A stretch of 64,000 bases of DNA from Allorhodopirellula solitaria (GTDB taxonomy: Bacteria > Planctomycetota > Planctomycetia > Pirellulales > Pirellulaceae). A program made the position numbers and the translations under genes. The stretch spans positions 367,003 to 431,002 of the forward strand of contig NZ_SJPK01000002.1 in NCBI RefSeq assembly GCF_007859855.1. Reading direction: 5' to 3'. Of the stretch, positions 97 through 60,700 are shown in pieces. Position 1 is the first letter of the stretch; every line of letters begins with the position of its first letter. The notes under the pieces are model-generated. The model ran no database searches, was not told the origin of the DNA, and saw nothing but the letters and a program-made list of their open reading frames with translations.

Positions 97-169
97 TAGA
101 TCAATCCTTAACTTGATGCCTATGAGGTCAGCGGATCGCCACCTACGGCGTCTCGTTGGTCGTGGAACG

Positions 170-300
170 TCGACCCCGAAGTGGGGCGCAGATCCCGTCC
201 TGAGTGATTTTCAACCCCCATTCGGGGTTGGCCCTTGAGGCTCGCGTCGTATCCGGTGGTGTTCGCTTGCGCTCAAACCACCGGCTATTTTCTATCATCC
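170..300. repeat. Degenerate copy of the 234-bp array unit
   Basis: This stretch carries, in the same order as the array at 54.8-57.7 kb, a GACCCCGAAG block, the CAACCCC/CGGGGTTGG hairpin, and GGTGGTGTTCGCTTGCGCTC followed by AAACCACCGGCTATTTTCTA. Intervening sequence is diverged and the rest of the unit (CCGCATTCGCGG, CCGGGGAT) is missing. The region 1-364 has no convincing gene; short ORFs here are products of the repeat. It is probably a decayed solitary copy left downstream of the minus-strand gene that ends at 365. Confidence 0.75.
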
Positions 301-16103: not shown

Positions 16104-18134
16104 ATGCGACATCTCAAACTACTTTTCATGGTCGCGTTGGCCGTCGCGTCGACATGGATCGGCGCCCCCGAAGTGATCGCCAAAGGGTTCAAAGGCGGCT
16201 CCCAAGGCCGTGGCGGGGGCGGAGGCGCTTCGCGAGGCGGGGCACGCCATGCCAGCATGCCCAACCTTGGTAGCAGTGGGCGATCTCGACCCCAACCCTC
16301 GATCAGTCGGCCCAGTTCGAGTCGCCCCAGCATCAGCCGCCCCAGCACAAGTCGCCCCAGCACGAGCCGGCCTAGCTTCAACCGGCCGACGACCAGTCGA
16401 CCCAATATCAGTCGCCCGGGCGGTCCGCAGCTCGATCGACCGAATCTAGGTGGCTCGATTTCAGGTGGCCTGAAACCAGCGACGCGGCCGAGCACGCGAC
16501 CGAATTTCCCCTCGACCCTGCCAGGCACGAAGCCCAGCCTACCTAGCGCGCGGCCGGGTAACCGACCCGAACGCCCCGCCACGTTGCCGGGCAACACGCT
16601 GCCCGGAAACCGACCCAATCGTCCGTCCACGTTGCCGGGCAAGAAACCGTCTCTGCCAGGGAACAAACCCAACCGGCCAAGTTTCCCCAGCCTCGACAAT
16701 GGCGGCCGCCCCGGCCGGTTGCCAGGCCACGCAGATCGCCCCTCGGCTGGCGACGTGGGGGATTTTCTCGGTATCGGCGGCGGGGTTCATCCAACCACCC
16801 TGCCCGGTAAACTGCCTAACAGACCCGACATCGCCAATCGCCCCGACCGACCTGGGAACAATCGGCCTGGAATCGATCGACCCGGCAACAACCGCCCTGG
16901 GAACGATCGGCCAGGGAATAATCGACCTGGGAACGACCGACCCGGGAACGACCGACCTGGGAATAACCGACCTGGGAACGACCGACCTGGGAACAACCGC
17001 CCTGGGAACGACCGACCGGGAATTGATCGACCGGGCAATAACCGCCCTGGAAACGATCGACCCGGAAACAATCGACCCAATAACCGGCCCAATAGCAGGC
17101 CCAACAATCGTCCGATCAATATCGGCAGTTTGAATGTCGGCAATCAGGTCATCAACAACCGACCGACGTGGAGCAATATCGACCGGACTTCCGTCAACCG
17201 AATTCAGAATCGCTGGGGCAACCAAATCGGCGGTCTCCATGGCTGGGCGGGCGCACGCCCTGGGCGAATCAATCAATGGCACTCATGGGGCAATGACGTT
17301 CGATTCCGCTGGAACGGCTATCATCATCACAACAATTGGTTCGCAGGCGATTGGTGGTACAGCCATCCCGGTGGGCTGTGCCCCTGGCACTACTACCATA
17401 GTTTCAACCGATACCCATGGAACTATTGGTGGCGACGTCCGACCTGGACTGCGGCATCGTCATGGTTCACTTGGTCCGCTCCCGCAACCGTTTGGTCACA
17501 ACCGATCTATTACGATTATGGGTCCGGTGGGAATGTGACGTATGAGAACAACAACGTTTACATCAATGGCGAAGAGGTCGCGACGGCCGATGAGTTTGCC
17601 CAGAGCGCTGCAGCTCTCGCGACGGTCACACCTCCTGTTTCCCCGGCGACCGAAGGTGGTGAAATCGCTGCCGAGGACGTGGCGGGTCAAGAGGTAGCCG
17701 ACAGTGATGCAGCCGACAGTGACCAGTGGATGCCGTTGGGGACGTTCGCATTGTCCACCGACGAAGATGATGTCGAACCCACTCGGCTCGTGCAGCTCGC
17801 AGTGGATAAATCGGGGATCATCTCAGGAACGCTGTACAACCGTGAAACGGATCAAGCCGACGCGATCCAAGGGCGGGTCGACAAACAGACGCAGCGAGTC
17901 GCCATGCGTCTGGGATCTACCGACGAGATCGTTGCCGAGACAGGTCTCTACAACCTGACCCAAGACGAGGCGCCGCTGTTGGTTCACTTTGGCACCGATC
18001 GCGTCGAGAACTACGTCCTAGTCCGCTTGGAAGAGCCCGAGGAACCTGCAGATTCGGCTGACGCGGAGGCGGATACTGTCGGTGATGACAGCGCCGCACT
18101 CGACGACGCTGGTTCGGCTGATACTGGCATCTGA
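16104..18134 (+). CDS. Exported low-complexity protein with RPGNN/RPGND repeats
   Basis: About 676 residues from the ATG at 16104 (a GTG at 16044 overlaps the previous stop but lacks a signal peptide). After the signal peptide (about 1-26) come a Gly/Arg/Ser-rich stretch, a PSTSRPS-type repeat, and a run of near-perfect RPGNNRPGND units at about nt 16840-17080. A Trp/His/Tyr-rich segment (WNGYHHHNNWFAGDWWYSHP) follows, then a globular C-terminus (about 470-676) that includes GNVTYENNNVYINGEEV. The C-terminal pattern recurs in exported planctomycete proteins; function unknown. A hairpin terminator follows. Confidence 0.82.
   Translation: MRHLKLLFMVALAVASTWIGAPEVIAKGFKGGSQGRGGGGGASRGGARHASMPNLGSSGRSRPQPSISRPSSSRPSISRPSTSRPSTSRPSFNRPTTSRPNISRPGGPQLDRPNLGGSISGGLKPATRPSTRPNFPSTLPGTKPSLPSARPGNRPERPATLPGNTLPGNRPNRPSTLPGKKPSLPGNKPNRPSFPSLDNGGRPGRLPGHADRPSAGDVGDFLGIGGGVHPTTLPGKLPNRPDIANRPDRPGNNRPGIDRPGNNRPGNDRPGNNRPGNDRPGNDRPGNNRPGNDRPGNNRPGNDRPGIDRPGNNRPGNDRPGNNRPNNRPNSRPNNRPINIGSLNVGNQVINNRPTWSNIDRTSVNRIQNRWGNQIGGLHGWAGARPGRINQWHSWGNDVRFRWNGYHHHNNWFAGDWWYSHPGGLCPWHYYHSFNRYPWNYWWRRPTWTAASSWFTWSAPATVWSQPIYYDYGSGGNVTYENNNVYINGEEVATADEFAQSAAALATVTPPVSPATEGGEIAAEDVAGQEVADSDAADSDQWMPLGTFALSTDEDDVEPTRLVQLAVDKSGIISGTLYNRETDQADAIQGRVDKQTQRVAMRLGSTDEIVAETGLYNLTQDEAPLLVHFGTDRVENYVLVRLEEPEEPADSADAEADTVGDDSAALDDAGSADTGI
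16840..17080 (+). repeat. Short tandem repeat encoding RPGNN/RPGND
   Basis: Near-identical 15-base units (CGACCTGGGAACAAC and variants) repeat about 15 times in frame. Both strands stay open across it, which creates long false ORFs on the minus strand. The number of units is likely to vary between strains. Confidence 0.9.
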
Positions 18135-53995: not shown

Positions 53996-54754
53996 GTGAC
54001 ACGCACTGCAATTTTGAGTGACATTCACGGCAACCTCGCAGCGCTCGAGGCTGTGATGGCAGACATGGAATCACAGCAGGTCGATCGCGTCGTCTGCTTG
54101 GGCGATGTGGTCGGCTACGGCCCGCAACCCTGTGAATGCCTAGACCAGGTCATGAAGTTCGATTTCTGCGTGCTCGGGAATCACGACAGCAGCTCACTGT
54201 TCGATCCCGAAGGGTTCAATGTGGCGGCCGAGCAAGCGATCTTCTGGACCCGGGCGGAGTTGGAAAAGGTCGGTGATCAACCGGAGCTCAGTCGGCGGCG
54301 GATCGACTATCTATGCGGGTTGCCCCGGACAGTTCGCGAGAACGATTGGCTATTTGTACACGGTTCGCCGCGTGGCCCAACCAACGAGTACGTCTTTCCC
54401 GAAGACACTCAAAATGCGAAGAAGATGGAGAAGCTCTTTTCGCTCGTGCCGCGTCTGTGCTTCCAGGGACACACGCACGTGCCAGGCGTTTTTACAGTCG
54501 ATCATCGCTTCATCCGCCCCGCCGAAACCGGGACCGGCTACTCGCTGGCCGACCCGCACGCGAAGCTGATGATCAACGTGGGTAGTGTCGGCCAGCCCCG
54601 CGATAGTGACCCCCGCAGCTGCTATGTGATCGCCGATCACGAAGTCCTCGAGTTCCGCCGCGTCGAGTACGACATCGAACGCACTGTGAAATTGATCGAA
54701 GCCGAAAGCGATCTCGACAATTTTCTCGGCTATCGGCTCCGTGAAGGACGCTGA
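53996..54754 (+). CDS. Calcineurin-like metallophosphoesterase (copy 2)
   Basis: I start at the GTG at 53996 because GAGGA lies about 10 bases upstream and conserved sequence (RTAILSDIHGN) begins there. The protein has 252 residues, the same as copy 1. Motifs: SDIHGN, LGDVVGYGPQP, GNHD and GHTHVPG. Shared stretches such as FVHGSPR-PTNEYVFPE and NVGSVGQPRD show recent duplication. The stop is followed directly by the repeat array. Substrate unknown. Confidence 0.93.
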   Translation: MTRTAILSDIHGNLAALEAVMADMESQQVDRVVCLGDVVGYGPQPCECLDQVMKFDFCVLGNHDSSSLFDPEGFNVAAEQAIFWTRAELEKVGDQPELSRRRIDYLCGLPRTVRENDWLFVHGSPRGPTNEYVFPEDTQNAKKMEKLFSLVPRLCFQGHTHVPGVFTVDHRFIRPAETGTGYSLADPHAKLMINVGSVGQPRDSDPRSCYVIADHEVLEFRRVEYDIERTVKLIEAESDLDNFLGYRLREGR

Positions 54755-54765
54755 GGCGTTTCCGG

Positions 54766-57710
54766 CGCCAACCACCGGCTATTGTCTAGAACCGCGTTCG
54801 CGGTAAAAGGGCGTCCTCGCGCATCCCAAAGGGTTCATCAGACAGTAGCCGGGGATAAGCGGAACGTCATCCCCGGTCATCGAACCGGCATACCCCACCG
54901 ACCCCGAAGGTGGTCGCAGCATCGAGTTGGAGCGACAGAGGCGGAACGGAAGGGGTATCCTGAAAACGAAAGGACCATCATTCACCCAGCTACTGAGGTA
55001 CTGCCATGTCGACCTTTCACAGCATCAACCTTCACGTCACTTTTGCGACCAAGCATCGCACACCTTGGATCAAGAGCGAATGGATCGGACGGTTGCATGA
55101 ATACCTAGGCGGTGTTGTCAAGCAACTCGATGCCAAGCCGTTGAAGATTGGGGGTATCGAGGATCATGTCCACTTGCTGTTTGGCATAAAACCCACCCAC
55201 CAACTATCGGAGTTTATGCGTGAGCTGAAGAAGGCTTCTAGCAAATGGGTGCATGAGACGATTCACTATCCGCCATTCCAGTGGCAAGACGGCTACGCAG
55301 TTTTCTCCGTCAGTCCGCCGAGCTGCATCGCGGTGTCTCGATACATTGCCAACCAACGGGCGCATCATCGAAAGCGATCGTTTCGCGAAGAACTGATTTC
55401 CATGCTCGACGAGGCCGGTATCGCGTACGATCCCAAGTATCTCGAGTAAGCGGTGGTGTTCGTTGCACTCAAACCACCAGCTATTGTCTATAACCGCATT
55501 CGCGGTAAGAGAACGCAGCGATCCATCCCGAAGGGATCATCAGACAATAGCCGGGGATAAGCGTAACGCCATCCCCGGACACCGAGCTAGCATACCCCAC
55601 CGACCCCGAAGGTGGTCGCAGCATCGGACATGGACGATCTTCAACCCCATCCGGGGTTGGCTCTTGCGTTTGTCGATGGTTCCCGGTGGTGTTCGCTTGC
55701 GCTCAAACCACCGGCTATTGTCTGAAACCGCATTCGCGGTAAGAGAACGCAGCGATCCATCCCGAAGGGATCATCAGACAATAGCCGGGGATAAGCGTAG
55801 CGCCATCCCCGGTCATCGAACCGGCGTACCCCACCGACCCGGAAGGTGGTCGCAGTATCCGACGCGGACGATCTTCAACCCCATTAGGGGTTGGCTCTTG
55901 CGTTTGGCGATGGCTCCCGGTGGTGTTCGCTTGCGCTCAAACCACCGGCTATTGTCTGAAACCGCATTCGCGGTAAGAGAACGCAGCGATCCATCCCAAA
56001 GGGATCGACAGACAATGGCCGGGGATAAGCGTAGCGCCATCCCCGGTCACCGAACCGGCATACCCCACCGACCCCGAAGGTGGTCGCAGAATCCGACGCG
56101 GGTGCTCTTTAACCCCATCCGGGGTTGGCTCTTGCGTTTGGCAATGGCTCCCGGTGGTGTTCGCTACGCTCAAACCACCGGCTATTAGCTGTAACCGCAT
56201 TCGCGGTAAGAGAGCGTCCAGGCACATCCCGGAGGGATCATCAGACAATAGCCGGGGATAAGCGTAGCGCCATCCCCGGTCACCGAGCTAGCGGATCCCG
56301 CCGACCCCGAAGGTGGTCGCAGAAGCCGGACGCGGATGCTCTTCAACCCCATCCGGGGTTGGCTCTTGCGTTTGTCGATGGTTACCGGTGGTGTTCGCTT
56401 GCGCTCAAACCACCGGCTATTTTCTATAACCGCATTCGCGGTAAGAGAGCGTCCAGGCACATCCCGAAGGGATCGGCAGACAATAGCCGGGGATAAGCGT
56501 AGCGCCATCCCCGGTCATCGAACTGGCATATCCCGCCGACCCCGAAGGCGGTCGCAGAAGCCGGACGCGGACGATCTTCAACCCCATTCGGGGTTGGCTC
56601 TTGCGTTTGTCGATGGTTCCCGGTGGTGTTCGCTTGCGCTCAAACCATCGGCTATTGTCTGTAACCGCATTCGCGGTAAGAGAGCGTCCAGGCACATCCC
56701 GAAGGGATCATCAGACAATAGCCGGGGATAAGCGTAACGCCATCCCCGGTCACCGAGCTAGCGGATCCCGCCGACCCCGAAGGTGGTCGCAGCATCCGAC
56801 GCGGATGCTCTTCAACCCCATCCGGGGTTGGCTCTTGCGTTTGGCGATGGCTCCCGGCGGTGTTCGATTGCGCTCAAACCACCGGCTATTGTCTGTAACC
56901 GCATTCGCGGTAAAAGCACGTAGCGACACATCCCGAAGGGATCGACAGACAGTAGCCGGGGATAAGCGTAGCGCCATCCCCGGTCATCGAGCTGGCATAC
57001 CCCGCCGACCCCGAAGGTGGTCGCAGCATCCGACGCGGATGCTCTTCAACGCCATCCGGGGCTGGCTCCTGCGTTTGTCGATGGTTACCGGTGGTGTTCG
57101 CTTGCGCTCAAACCACCGGCTATTGTCTGTAACCGCATTCGCGGTAAAAGCACGTAGCGACACATCCCGAAGGGATCGACAGACAGTAGCCGGGGATAAG
57201 CGTAGCGCCATCCCCGGTCACCGAACCGGCGTACCCCACCGACCCCGAAGGCGGTCGCAGCATCCGACGCGGATGCTCTTCAACCCCATCCGGGGTTGGC
57301 TCTTGCGTTTGGCGATGGCTCCCGGTGGTGTTCGCTGCGCTCAAACCACCGGCTATTGTCTGAAACCGCATTCGCGGTAAGAGAACGCAGCGACACATCC
57401 CGAAGGGATCATCAGACAATAGCCGGGGATAAGCGTAGCGCCATCCCCGGTCATCGAGCTGGCATATCCCGCCGACCCCGAAGGCGGTCGCAGAAGCCGG
57501 ACGCGGATGCTCTTCAACCCCATCCGGGGTTGGCTCTTGCGTTTGGCAATGGTTACCGGTGGTGTTCGCTTGCGCTCAAACCATCGGCTATTGTCTGTAA
57601 CCGCATTCGCGGTGAGCGGGCGTCCTCGCACATCCCGAAGGGATCATCAGACAATAGCCGGGGATAAGCGTAGCGCCATCCCCGGTCACCGCATTCGCGG
57701 TATGGGTCAT
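54766..57710. repeat. Structured tandem array, 234-bp period, about 10 units
   Basis: The landmark CCGCATTCGCGGT recurs at 55494, 55728, 55962, 56195, 56430, 56665, 56899, 57133, 57366 and 57601, intervals of 233-235 bp, with a left copy (CCGCGTTCGCGGT) at 54792 and a truncated right end. Each unit has stems such as CCGGCTATTGTCTG with CAGACAATAGCCGG (55711-55724 and 55775-55788), CCGGGGAT with ATCCCCGG, CAACCCC with GGGGTTG, and GGTGGT with ACCACC. There are no spacers, so this is not CRISPR. A Y1 transposase gene lies inside the left end. Long ORFs across it arise because the period is 78 codons. Confidence 0.95.
55006..55449 (+). CDS. tnpA: IS200/IS605-type Y1 transposase (RAYT-like)
   Basis: The 147-residue protein is a single-domain HUH/Y1 transposase: H54-V-H56 in EDHVHLLF holds the metal, and Tyr113 in YIANQ is the likely nucleophile. 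It has the usual length for IS200 TnpA. Such enzymes cut and rejoin single-stranded DNA at subterminal hairpins; REP-associated relatives (RAYTs) act on dispersed palindromes. Part of an array unit ends about 85 bp upstream (near 54920), and the array resumes at GGTGGTGTTCG just after the stop. There is no tnpB. Intact active-site residues suggest it may still function. Confidence 0.92.
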   Translation: MSTFHSINLHVTFATKHRTPWIKSEWIGRLHEYLGGVVKQLDAKPLKIGGIEDHVHLLFGIKPTHQLSEFMRELKKASSKWVHETIHYPPFQWQDGYAVFSVSPPSCIAVSRYIANQRAHHRKRSFREELISMLDEAGIAYDPKYLE

Positions 57711-57751
57711 CCAAAAAAAATCGCCGCTCAGGTTGGACCTGAGCGGCGATT
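57711..57751 (-). terminator. Intrinsic terminator of the giant surface protein gene
   Basis: Read on the minus strand, AATCGCCGCTCAGGT and ACCTGAGCGGCGATT form a perfect 15-bp stem around a 3-base loop, followed directly by eight T residues. It lies 33 bp after the stop of the surface-protein gene. It is the clearest intrinsic terminator in the window and separates that gene from the repeat array. Confidence 0.93.
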
Positions 57752-57783
57752 GGGGGCAATCCAGAGAGGGCTGGAATTGCTAA

Positions 57784-60700
57784 CTAGAAGCTATTGAGCA
57801 ATTCGTCAATCGCATCTTCGTATTCTGGATAGAGGTCCGTGATATCGTTGACGTCGTCGACATCGGTGAAGACGAAGTCGTTGACGCCGCCATACAGATC
57901 GACGCGAACGTCGCTGCCGGTGTCGAGCACGGCCAAGTGTTCGGCACTCACGGTTGCCGATTGTGCCGAGAGGTCGTCTTGGACGATCACGAGCAAGGCT
58001 TCGTCGCGTTCCTCGTTCATCAGCAGTTCGACGTACTGGGCGTTGCCGAAGTCACGGCCGACTAGGACGGCATTCTGCACCAAGGTGTTGTTGGCTGATT
58101 CGCTGAAGAAGAAACTCGATGTTTCGCCCACGGTGACGGTCGGTGGCAATCCTTCACGGTGGGGATCAGTCGTCAGGGCGTTGCGACCGGCGTAGTACTG
58201 CGAACCGAGGTCTTCAATCACAAAGTCTGCGGAGACTTCGAGAGGGACCTGGCTTCCCGCTGGGATCGAGACAGGGATCACCCCATCGGCACCTTCCCCG
58301 GTAACCACCATGCCGGGAGCGAGTTCGAAGCGAACCTCGTACTCTCCGGGCGGAACGTTCTCAAAGGTGTAGCGTCCATCGCGATCGGTAACCGCAGTGG
58401 TCTCCGTTCCCTGGGACGCTCCCACGCCGACCAAGTGGACCCGCACGCCGACGAGCGTGGTTTCGCCCGATTCGTACTCACCACTGTATGTTGGATCGGC
58501 ACCCGAGGAGGCCACGTCAACGATATTGGAGATCGAGTCCAGGAACAGCTGGCCGGTGACTTCCGAACCGACAACGACAGTGTCGTCGACCGTGATCGAA
58601 ACGGTGGCTGTATCGCTGCCGCCCTGTCCATCGCTGAGCGTGTAGACGAACGAATCGGAGCCCACGTAGTCGGTGTCAGGAGTGTAGGTGACGACGTTGT
58701 TGGTAACCAAGACGGTGCCGTTGGCGGGCTCATCACCTGCTTCCACGGTGACGGTGACGGTGTCGGTCTCGCCACCCGGGTTGGGCGTGTCATTGGTCAA
58801 AACATCGATCTGTGTGGCGGTGTCCTTCAGCACGGTAGCCGAATCATCATTGGCAATCGGTGCGTCGTTGACTGGAGTGACCGTGATTGCAATCACGCCG
58901 GTGTCGCTGCCAGCCGAGTTGGTGGCTTGGTAGGTGACGGAGTCCGAGCCGAAGTAGTCGGCATCGGGTCTGTAAGTCAGAATTCCGTTGAGCAGCTCTG
59001 CAGTACCGTGACTGGCACTGCTAACGAGAGTGATCGTCGCGGTGTCGCCGGGATCGGTTGTGACAAACTGGTTCAAGTCGGTCGAGCCAACTTCGTCCTC
59101 AGCAACAAGCAGCGTCCCGTCACCAGCAACTGGTGGAGCGAGCACGTCGGTGACCGTGATCGATACGGTTGCTTCAACAGCGGGAGCGACCCCGTCACTG
59201 ACGCTAACGCGGAAGGAATCGGTACCGACGTAATCGGCGTCGGGCGTGTACTGAACGAGGCCGCTGGCTAGCAGCACGGCGGTGCCGTTGGCAGGAGCGG
59301 TGACCACGGCTGCGGTTAGGTCGGTGGAATCCACATCCGTTGCATTGTCGACGACGTCGATGTCAACCGAGCCATTCTCAGCGACCGTTGCCGAGAGATC
59401 GCCCAATACGGGAGCGTCATTGACGGCATTGACCGTAAAGGTGAGAGTGCCCGTGTCCGATCCGGCCGCGTCAGTGGCACTGTAGACAACCGTGCCCGTT
59501 CCGTTGGCGTCCTGGGTCAGGTCAAGGACCAAGTCACTGCCATTGATGGTGGCCACACCCAGGTTGCTGGCCTGCGTGTCGATCGTGTAGGTGACCGAAC
59601 CGGCTTCCGACGTGGTCAAGGCTGCGAGGTCGACGGTAACGTCGCCGGAGTCTTCGTCGACGGCGGGCACGTTCTCGTCATCGGCAACCGGTGGGCTGAG
59701 CACGTCGACCACGGTCATGCTGATCGTGCCGTTGCTCGAGACGCCGCCATCGGTGTCCGTGACGATGTAGTCAAAGCTGAAGTTGCCCTCAGACGCGTTG
59801 CCGAGGGATTGGACCACAATCTGATTGTTGACTACCGAGGCAGTTCCCAGCGGTGAGAACGTTTGATCGGGCAGCGAGACGATCAAATCGTTTGTCGCTG
59901 TTTCGACATCCGAAGGACCGGTTTGTCCTCCACCAGGCTGGAGCACATTGATCGTCCGCGAGGCCATTTCGTTGACGTCGAAGGCCAGTGGCGGTGCGAC
60001 AGGGATGTCGTTGACGGCCGTGATCGTGACAAAGACCGTGCCGCTGTCACTGCCGGCGTCGTTGCTCGCCGTGTAGGTGATTGGCACGAGACCGTTATCG
60101 TTCTGTGCCGGTGTGTAGAAAATTTGGTCGCCGTCGATGCGGACGGATCCCCGATCCGTTGGCGCGGTGGCACTGTCGAGCGAGATGTTGTTATCGCCGC
60201 TGTTGACCGTGATCAGGCCGTCATCACTCAGGTCGGCCACCAGGACTTCACTGGTTGGACCACCACCGTTGTCTTCGTCAATCGTGATGCTCTTATCGGC
60301 GGCTGAAATGCCAGTGTCCACGTTGGCGACGTTGACGGTCACGGTGGCTGAATCGCTGAGCCCACCGGTGTCTGTGATCGTGTAGGTGAACGTGTCGGTT
60401 CCCGAGGCAGCACCGGCGTTGGGGGTGTAGCGAATTTCATCGCCTTCGATAGCGATCGTGCCGAGTGTCGGGGCGAGCGTGCCAGCGGTGACCGTCAATT
60501 CGCTCAGCGGCTCAGAGAAATCTCCGCCCGCATCGTCATTGGCGAGCACGGGGATCAGAATGCTGCTGCCGACGTCGACGGACAGGCTACCGGAATCTGG
60601 GTCATCGTTGGCAACCGGTGGATCGTTGACGGCATCGATGTTGACGGTCACGGTCGCCGTCGCGGTCCCGCCTGTTGGCGTCGATGCAGTGTAGACGACC

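What the first reader, a model, noticed from the sequence alone, without database searches (positions are those of the whole stretch)
54766..57710. A 234-bp multi-hairpin tandem array with an embedded Y1 transposase
About ten near-identical units with a 233-235 bp period sit beside and around an IS200/RAYT-like transposase. RAYTs normally associate with short palindromes (REPs/BIMEs). Here the unit is about ten times longer and holds at least six inverted repeats. The DNA or RNA form of such a unit would be highly structured, so it could be a substrate of the transposase, a replication or recombination hot spot, or a transcribed structured RNA array. I infer the transposase link from proximity; it is not proven.
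Basis: partly seen in the sequence, partly recalled or inferred. Interest (0 to 1): 0.8.

Follow-up and report, generated by a model that had tools for sequence, protein, structure and literature searches.

The report
Tandem hairpin array around transposase gene
A small single-strand-DNA transposase gene sits inside a tandem array of its own probable DNA target, an inverted pair of two-hairpin repeats, and the same two-hairpin pattern flanks many relatives of this transposase in several bacterial phyla, which gives a poorly understood enzyme group a testable DNA partner.

Summary
In detail: a 234-bp unit, 9.6 copies, at 55451-57691, with a partial unit on the other side of a 147-aa Y1 transposase gene (55006-55449). 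The unit is composite: hp1 - about 12 nt ending in TAG - hp2 - stuffer - hp2' - CTA... - hp1'. The gene occupies the stuffer slot of one unit.

The protein carries the motifs of TnpA-Y1 subclass 1.2, a group published as having no REP partner (PMC6006769). Over 118 loci of this group, tandem arrays are about 190 times denser within 150 bp of the gene than beyond 600 bp. Hairpin pairs 11-13 nt apart lie within 600 bp in 73 of 103 loci, against 4 of 144 distant windows, 0 of 23 long class-2 Y1 genes and 1 of 12 IS200 genes. One stem shows compensatory changes.

I read it as a REPtron-like system with a bipartite, TAG-tagged repeat, amplified locally. Copies only partly track the transposase, and arrays without a transposase exist. 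Cleavage by the transposase is inferred.

The parts
54770..54923 (+). partial unit upstream of the gene (half of hp2' A, hp1' B, hp1 C, TAG linker, hp2 E, hairpin F)
   Evidence: 88% identity to unit positions 24-177
55006..55449 (+). tnpA, 147 aa, Y1 HUH transposase with subclass 1.2 motifs: DHVH (aa 53-56), WQ (93-94), YIANQRAHH (from Y113)
55450..57691 (+). tandem array: nine full units of 233-235 bp and one partial unit
55683..55714 (-). unit 2: hairpin A = hp2' (stem 8)
55715..55726 (-). unit 2: 12-nt linker CTATTGTCTGAA, i.e. a TAG foot read on the - strand
   Evidence: sequence
55727..55740 (-). unit 2: hairpin B = hp1' (stem 5)
55741..55758 (.). unit 2: B-C joint, the most variable stretch of the unit (mean departure 0.24)
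55759..55771 (+). unit 2: hairpin C = hp1 (stem 5)
55772..55784 (+). unit 2: linker CATCAGACAATAG, TAG at the foot of hp2
   Evidence: general pattern
55785..55812 (+). unit 2: hairpin E = hp2 (stem 8); compensatory changes among homologous copies
55835..55852 (+). unit 2: hairpin F
55876..55893 (+). unit 2: hairpin H in the stuffer; in the first unit tnpA takes the place of this region (unit positions about 177-234)
131..296 (+). solitary, truncated dispersed copy (part of hp2, F, stuffer, H, A, linker), cut at its left by the end of an inserted repeated sequence; limits read by eye

Best explanation
The unit is the DNA partner of the transposase it surrounds, and the locus is a REPtron-like system built on a TnpA-Y1 subclass 1.2 protein. 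SHOWN: each side of an element is a two-hairpin module, hp1 (about 13-15 nt) - linker of about 12 nt ending in TAG - hp2 (about 20 nt or more), and two modules face each other around a stuffer. In one unit the stuffer is tnpA; in the other units it is about 60 bp with further hairpins. Related dispersed elements occur over the genome. The gene is often inherited at a fixed chromosomal site while the array beside it grows and shrinks. INFERRED: TnpA recognises hp2 through the TAG foot (its conserved WQ motif is shared with TnpAREP groups that recognise GTAG), with hp1 one helical turn upstream as a second contact. It cuts and rejoins these modules as single-stranded DNA, probably during replication. 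That disperses tnpA-less elements, and slippage, unequal recombination or TnpA-made joints between identical modules turn a unit into a tandem array.
For: Arrays of period 60 or more: 35 TRF rows in 29 of 118 loci within 150 bp of the gene (100 per 100 kb) against 0.53 per 100 kb beyond 600 bp. Hairpin pairs 11-13 nt apart within 600 bp: 73 of 103 loci against 4 of 144 distant windows. The gap histogram peaks at 12 nt near the gene and is flat far away. TAG ends 138 of 242 linkers. Controls: class-2 Y1 0 of 23, IS200 1 of 12 without TAG, a second subclass 1.2 set 12 of 17, 8 with TAG. Among the 85 loci with no array within 600 bp, 58 still have the pair, so it does not depend on arrays. In 25 of 28 array loci the unit lies on both sides of the gene. 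Nearest modules are oriented 5' side + 54, - 18; 3' side - 52, + 24. hp2 covariation: 97.2% of cells paired, 3 pairs with changes on both sides, covariation score reached by 0 of 500 shuffles. An exact core motif: 97 and 4 copies in the two genomes with the closest transposases, 0 in 11 others. Orthologous genes share the chromosomal site in 19 of 29 testable pairs, by my reading, and L094, L096 and L097 carry about 4, 1 and 1 downstream units at one site.
Against: No cleavage, binding or excision was or could be tested. Arrays without any transposase exist (4 loci chosen for clustered motif copies). A genome lacking one transposase lineage holds 17 of 38 exact copies of the module typical of it. 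One transposase of this very genome (C8) has lost H and Y catalytic residues (QVH, F for Y) yet still has its array. In Bacteroidota the two-hairpin pair is rare (4 of 22 loci; little changed by a looser GC limit). 35 of 118 loci have no 11-13 nt pair, and outside the genus arrays are a minority (12 of 80; 1 of 17). Within the array itself there are no compensatory changes.
Confidence: 0.68

Rival explanations
1. Passive amplification. Hairpin-rich DNA left by old insertions is amplified by replication slippage or unequal crossing-over, without any present role of the transposase, which is carried along.
For: Arrays without a transposase occur. The C8 transposase is catalytically broken but arrayed. 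Array copies differ mostly in spacers and look like ordinary tandem copies. One relative (L071) has tandem copies of the gene itself, about 1 kb apart.
Against: Does not explain why modules with one geometry (12-nt gap, TAG) flank subclass 1.2 genes in several phyla but not class-2 or IS200 genes, nor why the module sequence follows the transposase lineage also at some non-syntenic sites (60-92 bits). It can be true for the array step alone.
Confidence: 0.2
2. Structured RNA: the array is transcribed and acts as a repetitive regulatory or scaffold RNA.
For: Stable folds on both strands; conserved stems; some - strand hairpins score as terminator-like (7 of 9 sites are hairpin E).
Against: No Rfam match in the array region reached its gathering score; the best repeated one, fluoride riboswitch on the - strand, stayed at 15-18 bits against 34. 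No sigma-70-like promoter was found (0, expected 1.7, weak evidence). In the stem variants, read by eye with the rows, G-T and C-A combinations on the + strand are 6 and 6, so no strand preference that an RNA would leave (12 cells only). Modules occur in both orientations.
Confidence: 0.05
3. The dispersed elements of this genome are MITEs of another transposase (their outer inverted repeats GTAGTGGACGAGGCGACGAG...), and the tnpA array merely borrowed related hairpins.
For: Many dispersed copies have long outer inverted repeats that the window array lacks. These repeats were not found beside the Y1 genes of this genome that were checked (13 sequences, some the same locus twice).
Against: The inner order C-E-F-stuffer-H-A-B and the TAG-tagged modules are the same as in the array. 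No other transposase with these ends was identified, but none of non-Y1 type was looked for.
Confidence: 0.07

Closest known systems
TnpA-Y1 subclass 1.2 (Quentin et al. 2018, PMC6006769; abstract, passages and sections 12, 13, 17, 18 read)
   Same: DH[IV]H, WQ, Y---Q--HH, median 148 aa, 1.7 copies per genome with low mutual identity; the window protein is 147 aa with DHVH, WQ, YIANQRAHH, and this genome has three diverged copies.
   Different: Published as 'REP: no', mostly Cyanobacteria and Bacteroidetes, generally without terminal secondary structures. Here two-hairpin modules flank most members found in Planctomycetota, Verrucomicrobiota and Acidobacteriota.
REPtrons and BIMEs of class-2 TnpAREP/RAYT (PMC6006769; PMC8266576, passages and section 29; PMC2817692, search listing only)
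   Same: Gene flanked by tagged palindromes in inverted pairs, dispersed copies, one repeat family per transposase, tandem copies frequent, gene stable rather than mobile.
   Different: Different transposase class; a two-hairpin module with a fixed spacer of about 12 nt instead of one hairpin; TAG with a free base before it instead of GT[AG]G; units near 234 bp; gene inside a unit.
TIRtrons/TIRYT and planctomycete GTAG repeats (Di Nocera et al. 2013, PMC3733652; abstract, passages and section 16)
   Same: Tyrosine transposases flanked by long inverted repeats, some self-complementary and repeated in the genome; Rhodopirellula baltica named as rich in both; large REP clusters with tandemly reiterated singletons or dimers.
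   Different: In the parts read, no two-hairpin module with fixed spacing, no array with the gene in a unit slot, no link to subclass 1.2 (defined later).
IS200/IS605 insertion sequences and their MITE/PATE derivatives (PMC3119063 for PATE, search listing only; otherwise recalled)
   Same: Nearest solved structures are IS200/IS605-type TnpA; hairpin ends; tnpA-less copies share ends with the tnpA copy.
   Different: Not multi-copy near-identical; no tnpB was seen beside the window gene; rare on plasmids; fixed sites in many orthologous pairs.

Membership tests
TnpA-Y1 subclass 1.2 | HuH = DH[IV]H, W motif = WQ, Y motif = Y---Q--HH | tested here: met
   Window protein DHVH, WQ, YIANQRAHH. Over 118 loci: DHxH 113, WQ 117, Y---Q--HH 112.
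TnpA-Y1 subclass 1.2 | separate from subclass 1.1 by sequence | tested here: met
   126 such proteins split from 11 IS200-type and 26 class-2 proteins in a FastTree tree, support 0.76. No reference sequences of the paper were at hand.
TnpA-Y1 subclass 1.2 | low copy number with low mutual identity | tested here: met
   Three copies in this genome, 34-41% identical to the window protein.
TnpA-Y1 subclass 1.2 | specific C-terminal domain (30 aa HMM) | not tested
   The paper's HMM was not available; a conserved C-terminus is visible.
TnpA-Y1 subclass 1.2 | descriptive: generally no flanking REP or terminal structure | tested here: not met
   83 of 118 loci have an 11-13 nt two-hairpin pair. It is a 'generally' statement, not a defining residue, so membership stands on the protein.
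RAYT / TnpAREP (class 2) | Y---NP motif and RAYT family score | tested here: not met
   Y---Q--HH; NF047646 23.1 bits against a cut-off of 80.
REPtron / BIME organisation | tagged palindromes flank the gene in inverted orientation, with dispersed copies | tested here: met
   Orientation counts; 90 of 97 exact core motifs lie outside the array.
REPtron / BIME organisation | GT[AG]G tetranucleotide at the foot of a single hairpin | tested here: not met
   TAG is conserved but the base before it is G in only 33% of 110 12-nt linkers; a second hairpin is present.
REPtron / BIME organisation | TnpA cleaves and rejoins the repeat | not testable with these tools
   Needs protein and oligonucleotides.
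IS200/IS605 insertion sequence (subclass 1.1) | recent multi-copy mobility, near-identical copies at different sites | tested here: not met
   19 of 29 testable ortholog-like pairs share a site (my count); 2 plasmid records cover 80% of the query against 725 for a 1.1 query; no relative found in viral contigs. L071 has three adjacent copies, a tandem duplication.
TnpA-Y1 class 3 | NHVH, YV[VI]xEQ, median length 178 | tested here: not met
   Motifs differ.
Structured non-coding RNA of Rfam | match at gathering score | tested here: not met
   10 matches at E up to 1 in 54700-57800, none at its gathering score.

The most novel reading that the evidence does not exclude
Subclass 1.2 TnpA proteins are the engines of a third kind of repeat-transposase system, besides IS200/IS605 elements and class-2 REPtrons. 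It has a bipartite target: a small guide-like hairpin one helical turn from a TAG-tagged main hairpin, both held by one TnpA dimer. Inverted pairs of this target make a self-amplifying satellite that disperses tnpA-less copies and builds tandem arrays, in Planctomycetota, Verrucomicrobiota, Acidobacteriota and other phyla.
Probability: 0.33. Interest if true: 0.8.

Novelty: new variant of a known kind. Interest (0 to 1): 0.6.

Why it matters
Subclass 1.2 was described without any DNA partner and without IS behaviour, so nobody knew what it acts on. A sharp, sequence-independent geometry (hp1 - about 9 nt - TAG - hp2) gives a concrete substrate to test, in a protein group that sits between insertion-sequence transposases and domesticated REP transposases. 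If confirmed it bears on how transposases become domesticated, on the origin of REP-like repeats outside Proteobacteria, and on how tandem arrays of 100-350 bp arise in bacterial chromosomes.

Tried and rejected
Rejected readings. RAYT in the strict sense: motif and profile fail. Class 3: motifs differ. CRISPR-like array: the whole 234-bp period repeats, with no unique spacers. Known RNA family: none at gathering score. Outer inverted repeats of the dispersed elements as marks of another Y1 transposase: not found beside 13 Y1 sequences of this genome.

Led nowhere. Covariation inside the array: copies too young. hp1 stems of the homologous copies could not be counted because the loops differ in length and the alignments slip. 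A 1.1 control set from the phylum and from viral contigs gave too few loci, so plasmid loci were used. The insertion that cuts hp2 in 13 places could not be read: it lies in an assembly gap or at contig ends in the places looked at. No structure prediction was run: matches to solved TnpA sequences (E down to 1.5e-17) made it unnecessary. Not tested: strand bias against replication, RNA-seq.

Limits of the counts. The 80 named loci are the best 80 of 581 found with one conserved peptide pattern; they are mostly MAGs, and phylum labels were read by me from record titles. Loci near contig ends count as misses. The 118 genes fall into 106 clusters at 80% DNA identity, of which 74 have the 11-13 nt pair, 59 a TAG foot, 27 an array within 150 bp. 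Distant windows are partly coding; the class-2 and IS200 flanks are the fairer control but small. The IS200 control has no genome in common with most test loci. Hairpins were perfect stems with 60% GC or more, loops up to 14 or 18. The Mantel correlation of repeat similarity with protein identity (r = 0.66, 0 of 2000 permutations) is confounded by shared chromosomal sites. Rows dropped: 42 of 107 candidate control or second-set loci is not a figure I can give, 18 and more loci without a recognised motif were left out, and duplicates among class 2 and the window's own L228 were dropped.
Full report
WHAT IS THERE. The window holds one large tandem array, 55451-57691, period 234, 9.6 copies, 91% matches. 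A partial unit lies at 54770-54923, and between them is a 147-aa Y1 transposase gene, 55006-55449. Two other short Y1 transposases of the same genome are also set in tandem hairpin arrays of their own, with different units: C7 (period about 255) and C8 (period 100). The C8 protein has QVH for HUH and F for the catalytic Y, and is shortened. That three of three were arrayed made a survey worth while.

ANATOMY OF THE UNIT. In order on the + strand: A (hp2', stem 8), linker CTATTGTCTG.A, B (hp1', stem 5), a variable joint, C (hp1, stem 5), linker CATCAGACAATAG, E (hp2, stem 8), F, a stuffer with H, then A again. So each unit is an inverted pair of two-hairpin modules, hp1 - linker ending in TAG - hp2. 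Upstream of tnpA the unit sequence runs to position 176, and downstream it restarts at position 1-2: the gene stands where the other units have their stuffer. In 25 of 28 loci with an array of period 90 or more within 300 bp, unit sequence lies on both sides of the gene. In L067, L089, L095 and L100 the two sides meet within about 10 unit positions, as if the gene-free unit were simply the empty form.

DISPERSED COPIES. The exact core ACCACCGGCTATTNTCT occurs 97 times in this genome, 7 in the array and 90 elsewhere; 4 times in G007, which has the most similar transposase (84%); and in none of the other 11 genomes of the genus; the backward-read control pattern gave none (identities). With the whole unit as query, 12 of 13 genomes of the genus (not G005), 1 of 12 from other genera of the family and 0 of 15 from other families had a match at E 0.001. 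Many of these partial matches end near positions 58, 131 or 209-228, that is at module ends, by my reading of the table. Of 18 places read in 17 fetched loci, most keep the order E-F-stuffer-H-A-B, and several have long outer inverted repeats that the array lacks.

THE SURVEY. Homologs were found in 13 of 13 genomes of the genus; 38 regions were fetched, and 80 loci with record names from a scan of species genomes (the best 80 of 581). TRF rows of period 60 or more: 35 within 150 bp of the gene (100 per 100 kb), 6 at 150-300, 5 at 300-600, then 1, 1 and 3 in the outer bins, which is 0.53 per 100 kb beyond 600 bp, a ratio near 190. Overlapping rows can describe one array; by locus it is 29 of 118, namely 17 of 38 in the genus and 12 of 80 elsewhere. 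Hairpins with stems of 8 or more are 3.8 per kb within 150 bp and 0.2 per kb beyond 2.4 kb.

THE TWO-HAIRPIN MODULE. Near the gene the gap between neighbouring hairpins peaks sharply: 11 nt 44, 12 nt 114, 13 nt 48, with a second, broader rise at 20-27 nt; far away it is flat. By locus: 73 of 103 loci with 600 bp on both sides have an 11-13 nt pair there, against 4 of 144 distant windows of equal size. With loops up to 18, and gaps of 10-14 nt, 242 modules in 89 of 118 loci; 138 of 242 linkers end in TAG, and 66 of the 89 loci have such a module. The 110 linkers of 12 nt give the consensus GACAGNNNNTAG (T 0.78, A 0.85, G 0.89 for TAG; the base before is G 0.33, T 0.32, A 0.28). Nearest modules point hp1 outwards: 5' side 54 against 18, 3' side 52 against 24. 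Among 85 loci without an array within 600 bp, 58 have the 11-13 nt pair and 50 a TAG foot.

CONTROLS. Long class-2 Y1 genes, nearly all from the same genus: 0 of 23 with the pair, 1 of 23 with an array. IS200-type (1.1) genes, four from the class and eight from plasmids: 1 of 12 with a pair, without TAG, and 0 of 12 with an array. A second set of subclass 1.2 genes, 15 from the class and 2 from plasmids: 12 of 17 with the pair, 8 with TAG, 1 with an array; none of these 17 genes matched the 118 loci by megablast. So the module belongs to subclass 1.2, while arrays are common mainly in this genus. By group (11-13 nt pair / TAG foot / array within 150 bp): own genus 34, 25, 17 of 38; other Planctomycetota 21, 19, 2 of 25; Verrucomicrobiota 15, 13, 2 of 20; Acidobacteriota 5, 3, 0 of 6; Deltaproteobacteria sensu lato 3, 2, 3 of 4; Bacteroidota 4, 2, 5 of 22; three single loci 1, 2, 0 of 3. 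Bacteroidota are thus mostly negative for the pair, also with a looser GC limit, which may be why a study rich in Bacteroidetes and Cyanobacteria reported no REP. Cyanobacteria were not among the 80 loci.

THE PROTEIN. NCBIfam IS200 68.2 bits against a cut-off of 55; RAYT 23.1 against 80. A profile of 27 relatives finds IS200/IS605-type TnpA among solved structures (8 sequences, best E 1.5e-17). The motifs match the published subclass 1.2 row exactly: DH[IV]H, WQ, Y---Q--HH, median 148 aa, REP 'no' (section 18). WQ is invariant in the 27. The same paper says W94 and Q95 are well conserved in the TnpAREP subclasses with GTAG repeats; that a TAG foot goes with WQ here is suggestive, no more. In a tree the 126 proteins split from 11 IS200-type ones (support 0.76).

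IS IT MOBILE? Of 30 ortholog-like pairs (75% or more) from different genomes, 29 can be tested for shared outer flanks and 19 share them by my count. L094, L096 and L097 lie between the same neighbours at least on one side, with 4.2 downstream units in L094 and about one in the others. Non-syntenic pairs of one lineage still share repeats (60-92 bits), while diverged transposases of one genome mostly do not (median 0 in 44 pairs). Full-length relatives were found in 2 of 72,556 plasmid records against 725 for an IS200 query (looser in E), and none in viral contigs. This is the behaviour of a resident gene with its own repeats.

AGAINST THE SIMPLE STORY. The module TTAGCTCGGGGTGGAAGCCCCGAG of the L077/L078/L081/L083 lineage occurs in the four genomes with intact genes of that lineage (1, 17, 2 and 1 copies) and not in G011, whose gene is broken and whose modules differ slightly; but also 17 times in G002, which has no such gene. 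Similar CTCGGGG modules stand beside the different L086/L090 lineage. Four regions with clustered copies in G002 and G009 are tandem arrays (periods 197-315) with no hit of any of the genus transposases. So arrays can exist without a transposase beside them, and a module family can outlive or switch its gene. Whether TnpA makes arrays or they grow passively is open.

STEM EVIDENCE. Homologous copies of C-linker-E from the array (4), from this genome (10 dispersed) and from G007 (2): hp2 pairs in 97.2% of cells; 3 of 8 pairs with changes on both sides; 15 cells changed on both sides against 5.4 expected from shuffles; covariation 0.28 against 0.11, 0 of 500 shuffles as high; slid versions 0.03-0.05. 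The number of pairs changed on both sides is not above the shuffles (339 of 500 as high). I chose these copies by position, leaving out copies that lack the left side. Inside the array stems hardly vary, and the few changes are one-sided.

MECHANISM. See Best explanation for what is shown and what is inferred. The 12-nt spacing, about one turn of duplex DNA, is the main reason to think that one TnpA dimer holds both hairpins; that is a guess.

LITERATURE. PMC6006769 and PMC3733652 are the nearest; of the first I read the abstract, passages and sections 12, 13, 17, 18, of the second the abstract, passages and section 16, of PMC8266576 passages and section 29. In these searches and passages I saw no two-hairpin module with fixed spacing and no repeat partner for subclass 1.2. 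The library lacks most subscription papers, and supplements were not read. PMC3733652 already reports REP families and many tyrosine transposases with flanking repeats in Rhodopirellula baltica. That the genus here is Rhodopirellula is an inference: one relative, G004, has a single contig of 7,145,576 bases, the length I recall for R. baltica SH1.

VERDICT.

Noticed in passing
window 110-135 and 12 other places in G000: The end of a repeated sequence (TTAACTTGATGCCTATGA) abuts the same point of hp2 (GGTCAGCG) 13 times, so an unidentified insertion element seems to target this hairpin. In the window's copy the sequence beyond is an assembly gap.
   Followed up: partly
L071 4934-7392 (G002 C1:6437933-6440367): Three identical copies of a subclass 1.2 transposase gene in tandem, about 1 kb apart, with unit sequence between them: the gene-bearing unit itself can be duplicated.
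   Followed up: partly
L103 (G000 C8:108340-108777): A subclass 1.2 transposase with both catalytic motifs altered and a shortened end, still set in a 100-bp array.
   Followed up: partly
L279, L280 (G002), L281, L282 (G009): Tandem arrays (periods 197-315) built around the CTCGGGG two-hairpin module with no transposase hit in the 6-9 kb read; the repeated stretch includes ordinary-looking flanking DNA.
   Followed up: partly
gap histogram, 118 loci: A second, broader preferred spacing between neighbouring hairpins at 20-27 nt near the gene, about twice the first.
   Followed up: no
L005, L006 and other long Y1 genes of G000: The long Y1 genes (about 230-270 aa) looked at are bordered by GAAAA(A)GGTGACGGAGGTA-like inverted ends, reminiscent of the published TIRtrons.
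   Followed up: no
L018-L033 flanks in G000: Dispersed copies lie inside further layers of inverted repeats (GTAGTGGACGAGGCGACGAG and beyond), so repeats are nested.
   Followed up: partly
window 16844-17077: A 15-bp tandem repeat, 15.6 copies, unrelated to the hairpin array, with other short repeats in the same region.
   Followed up: no
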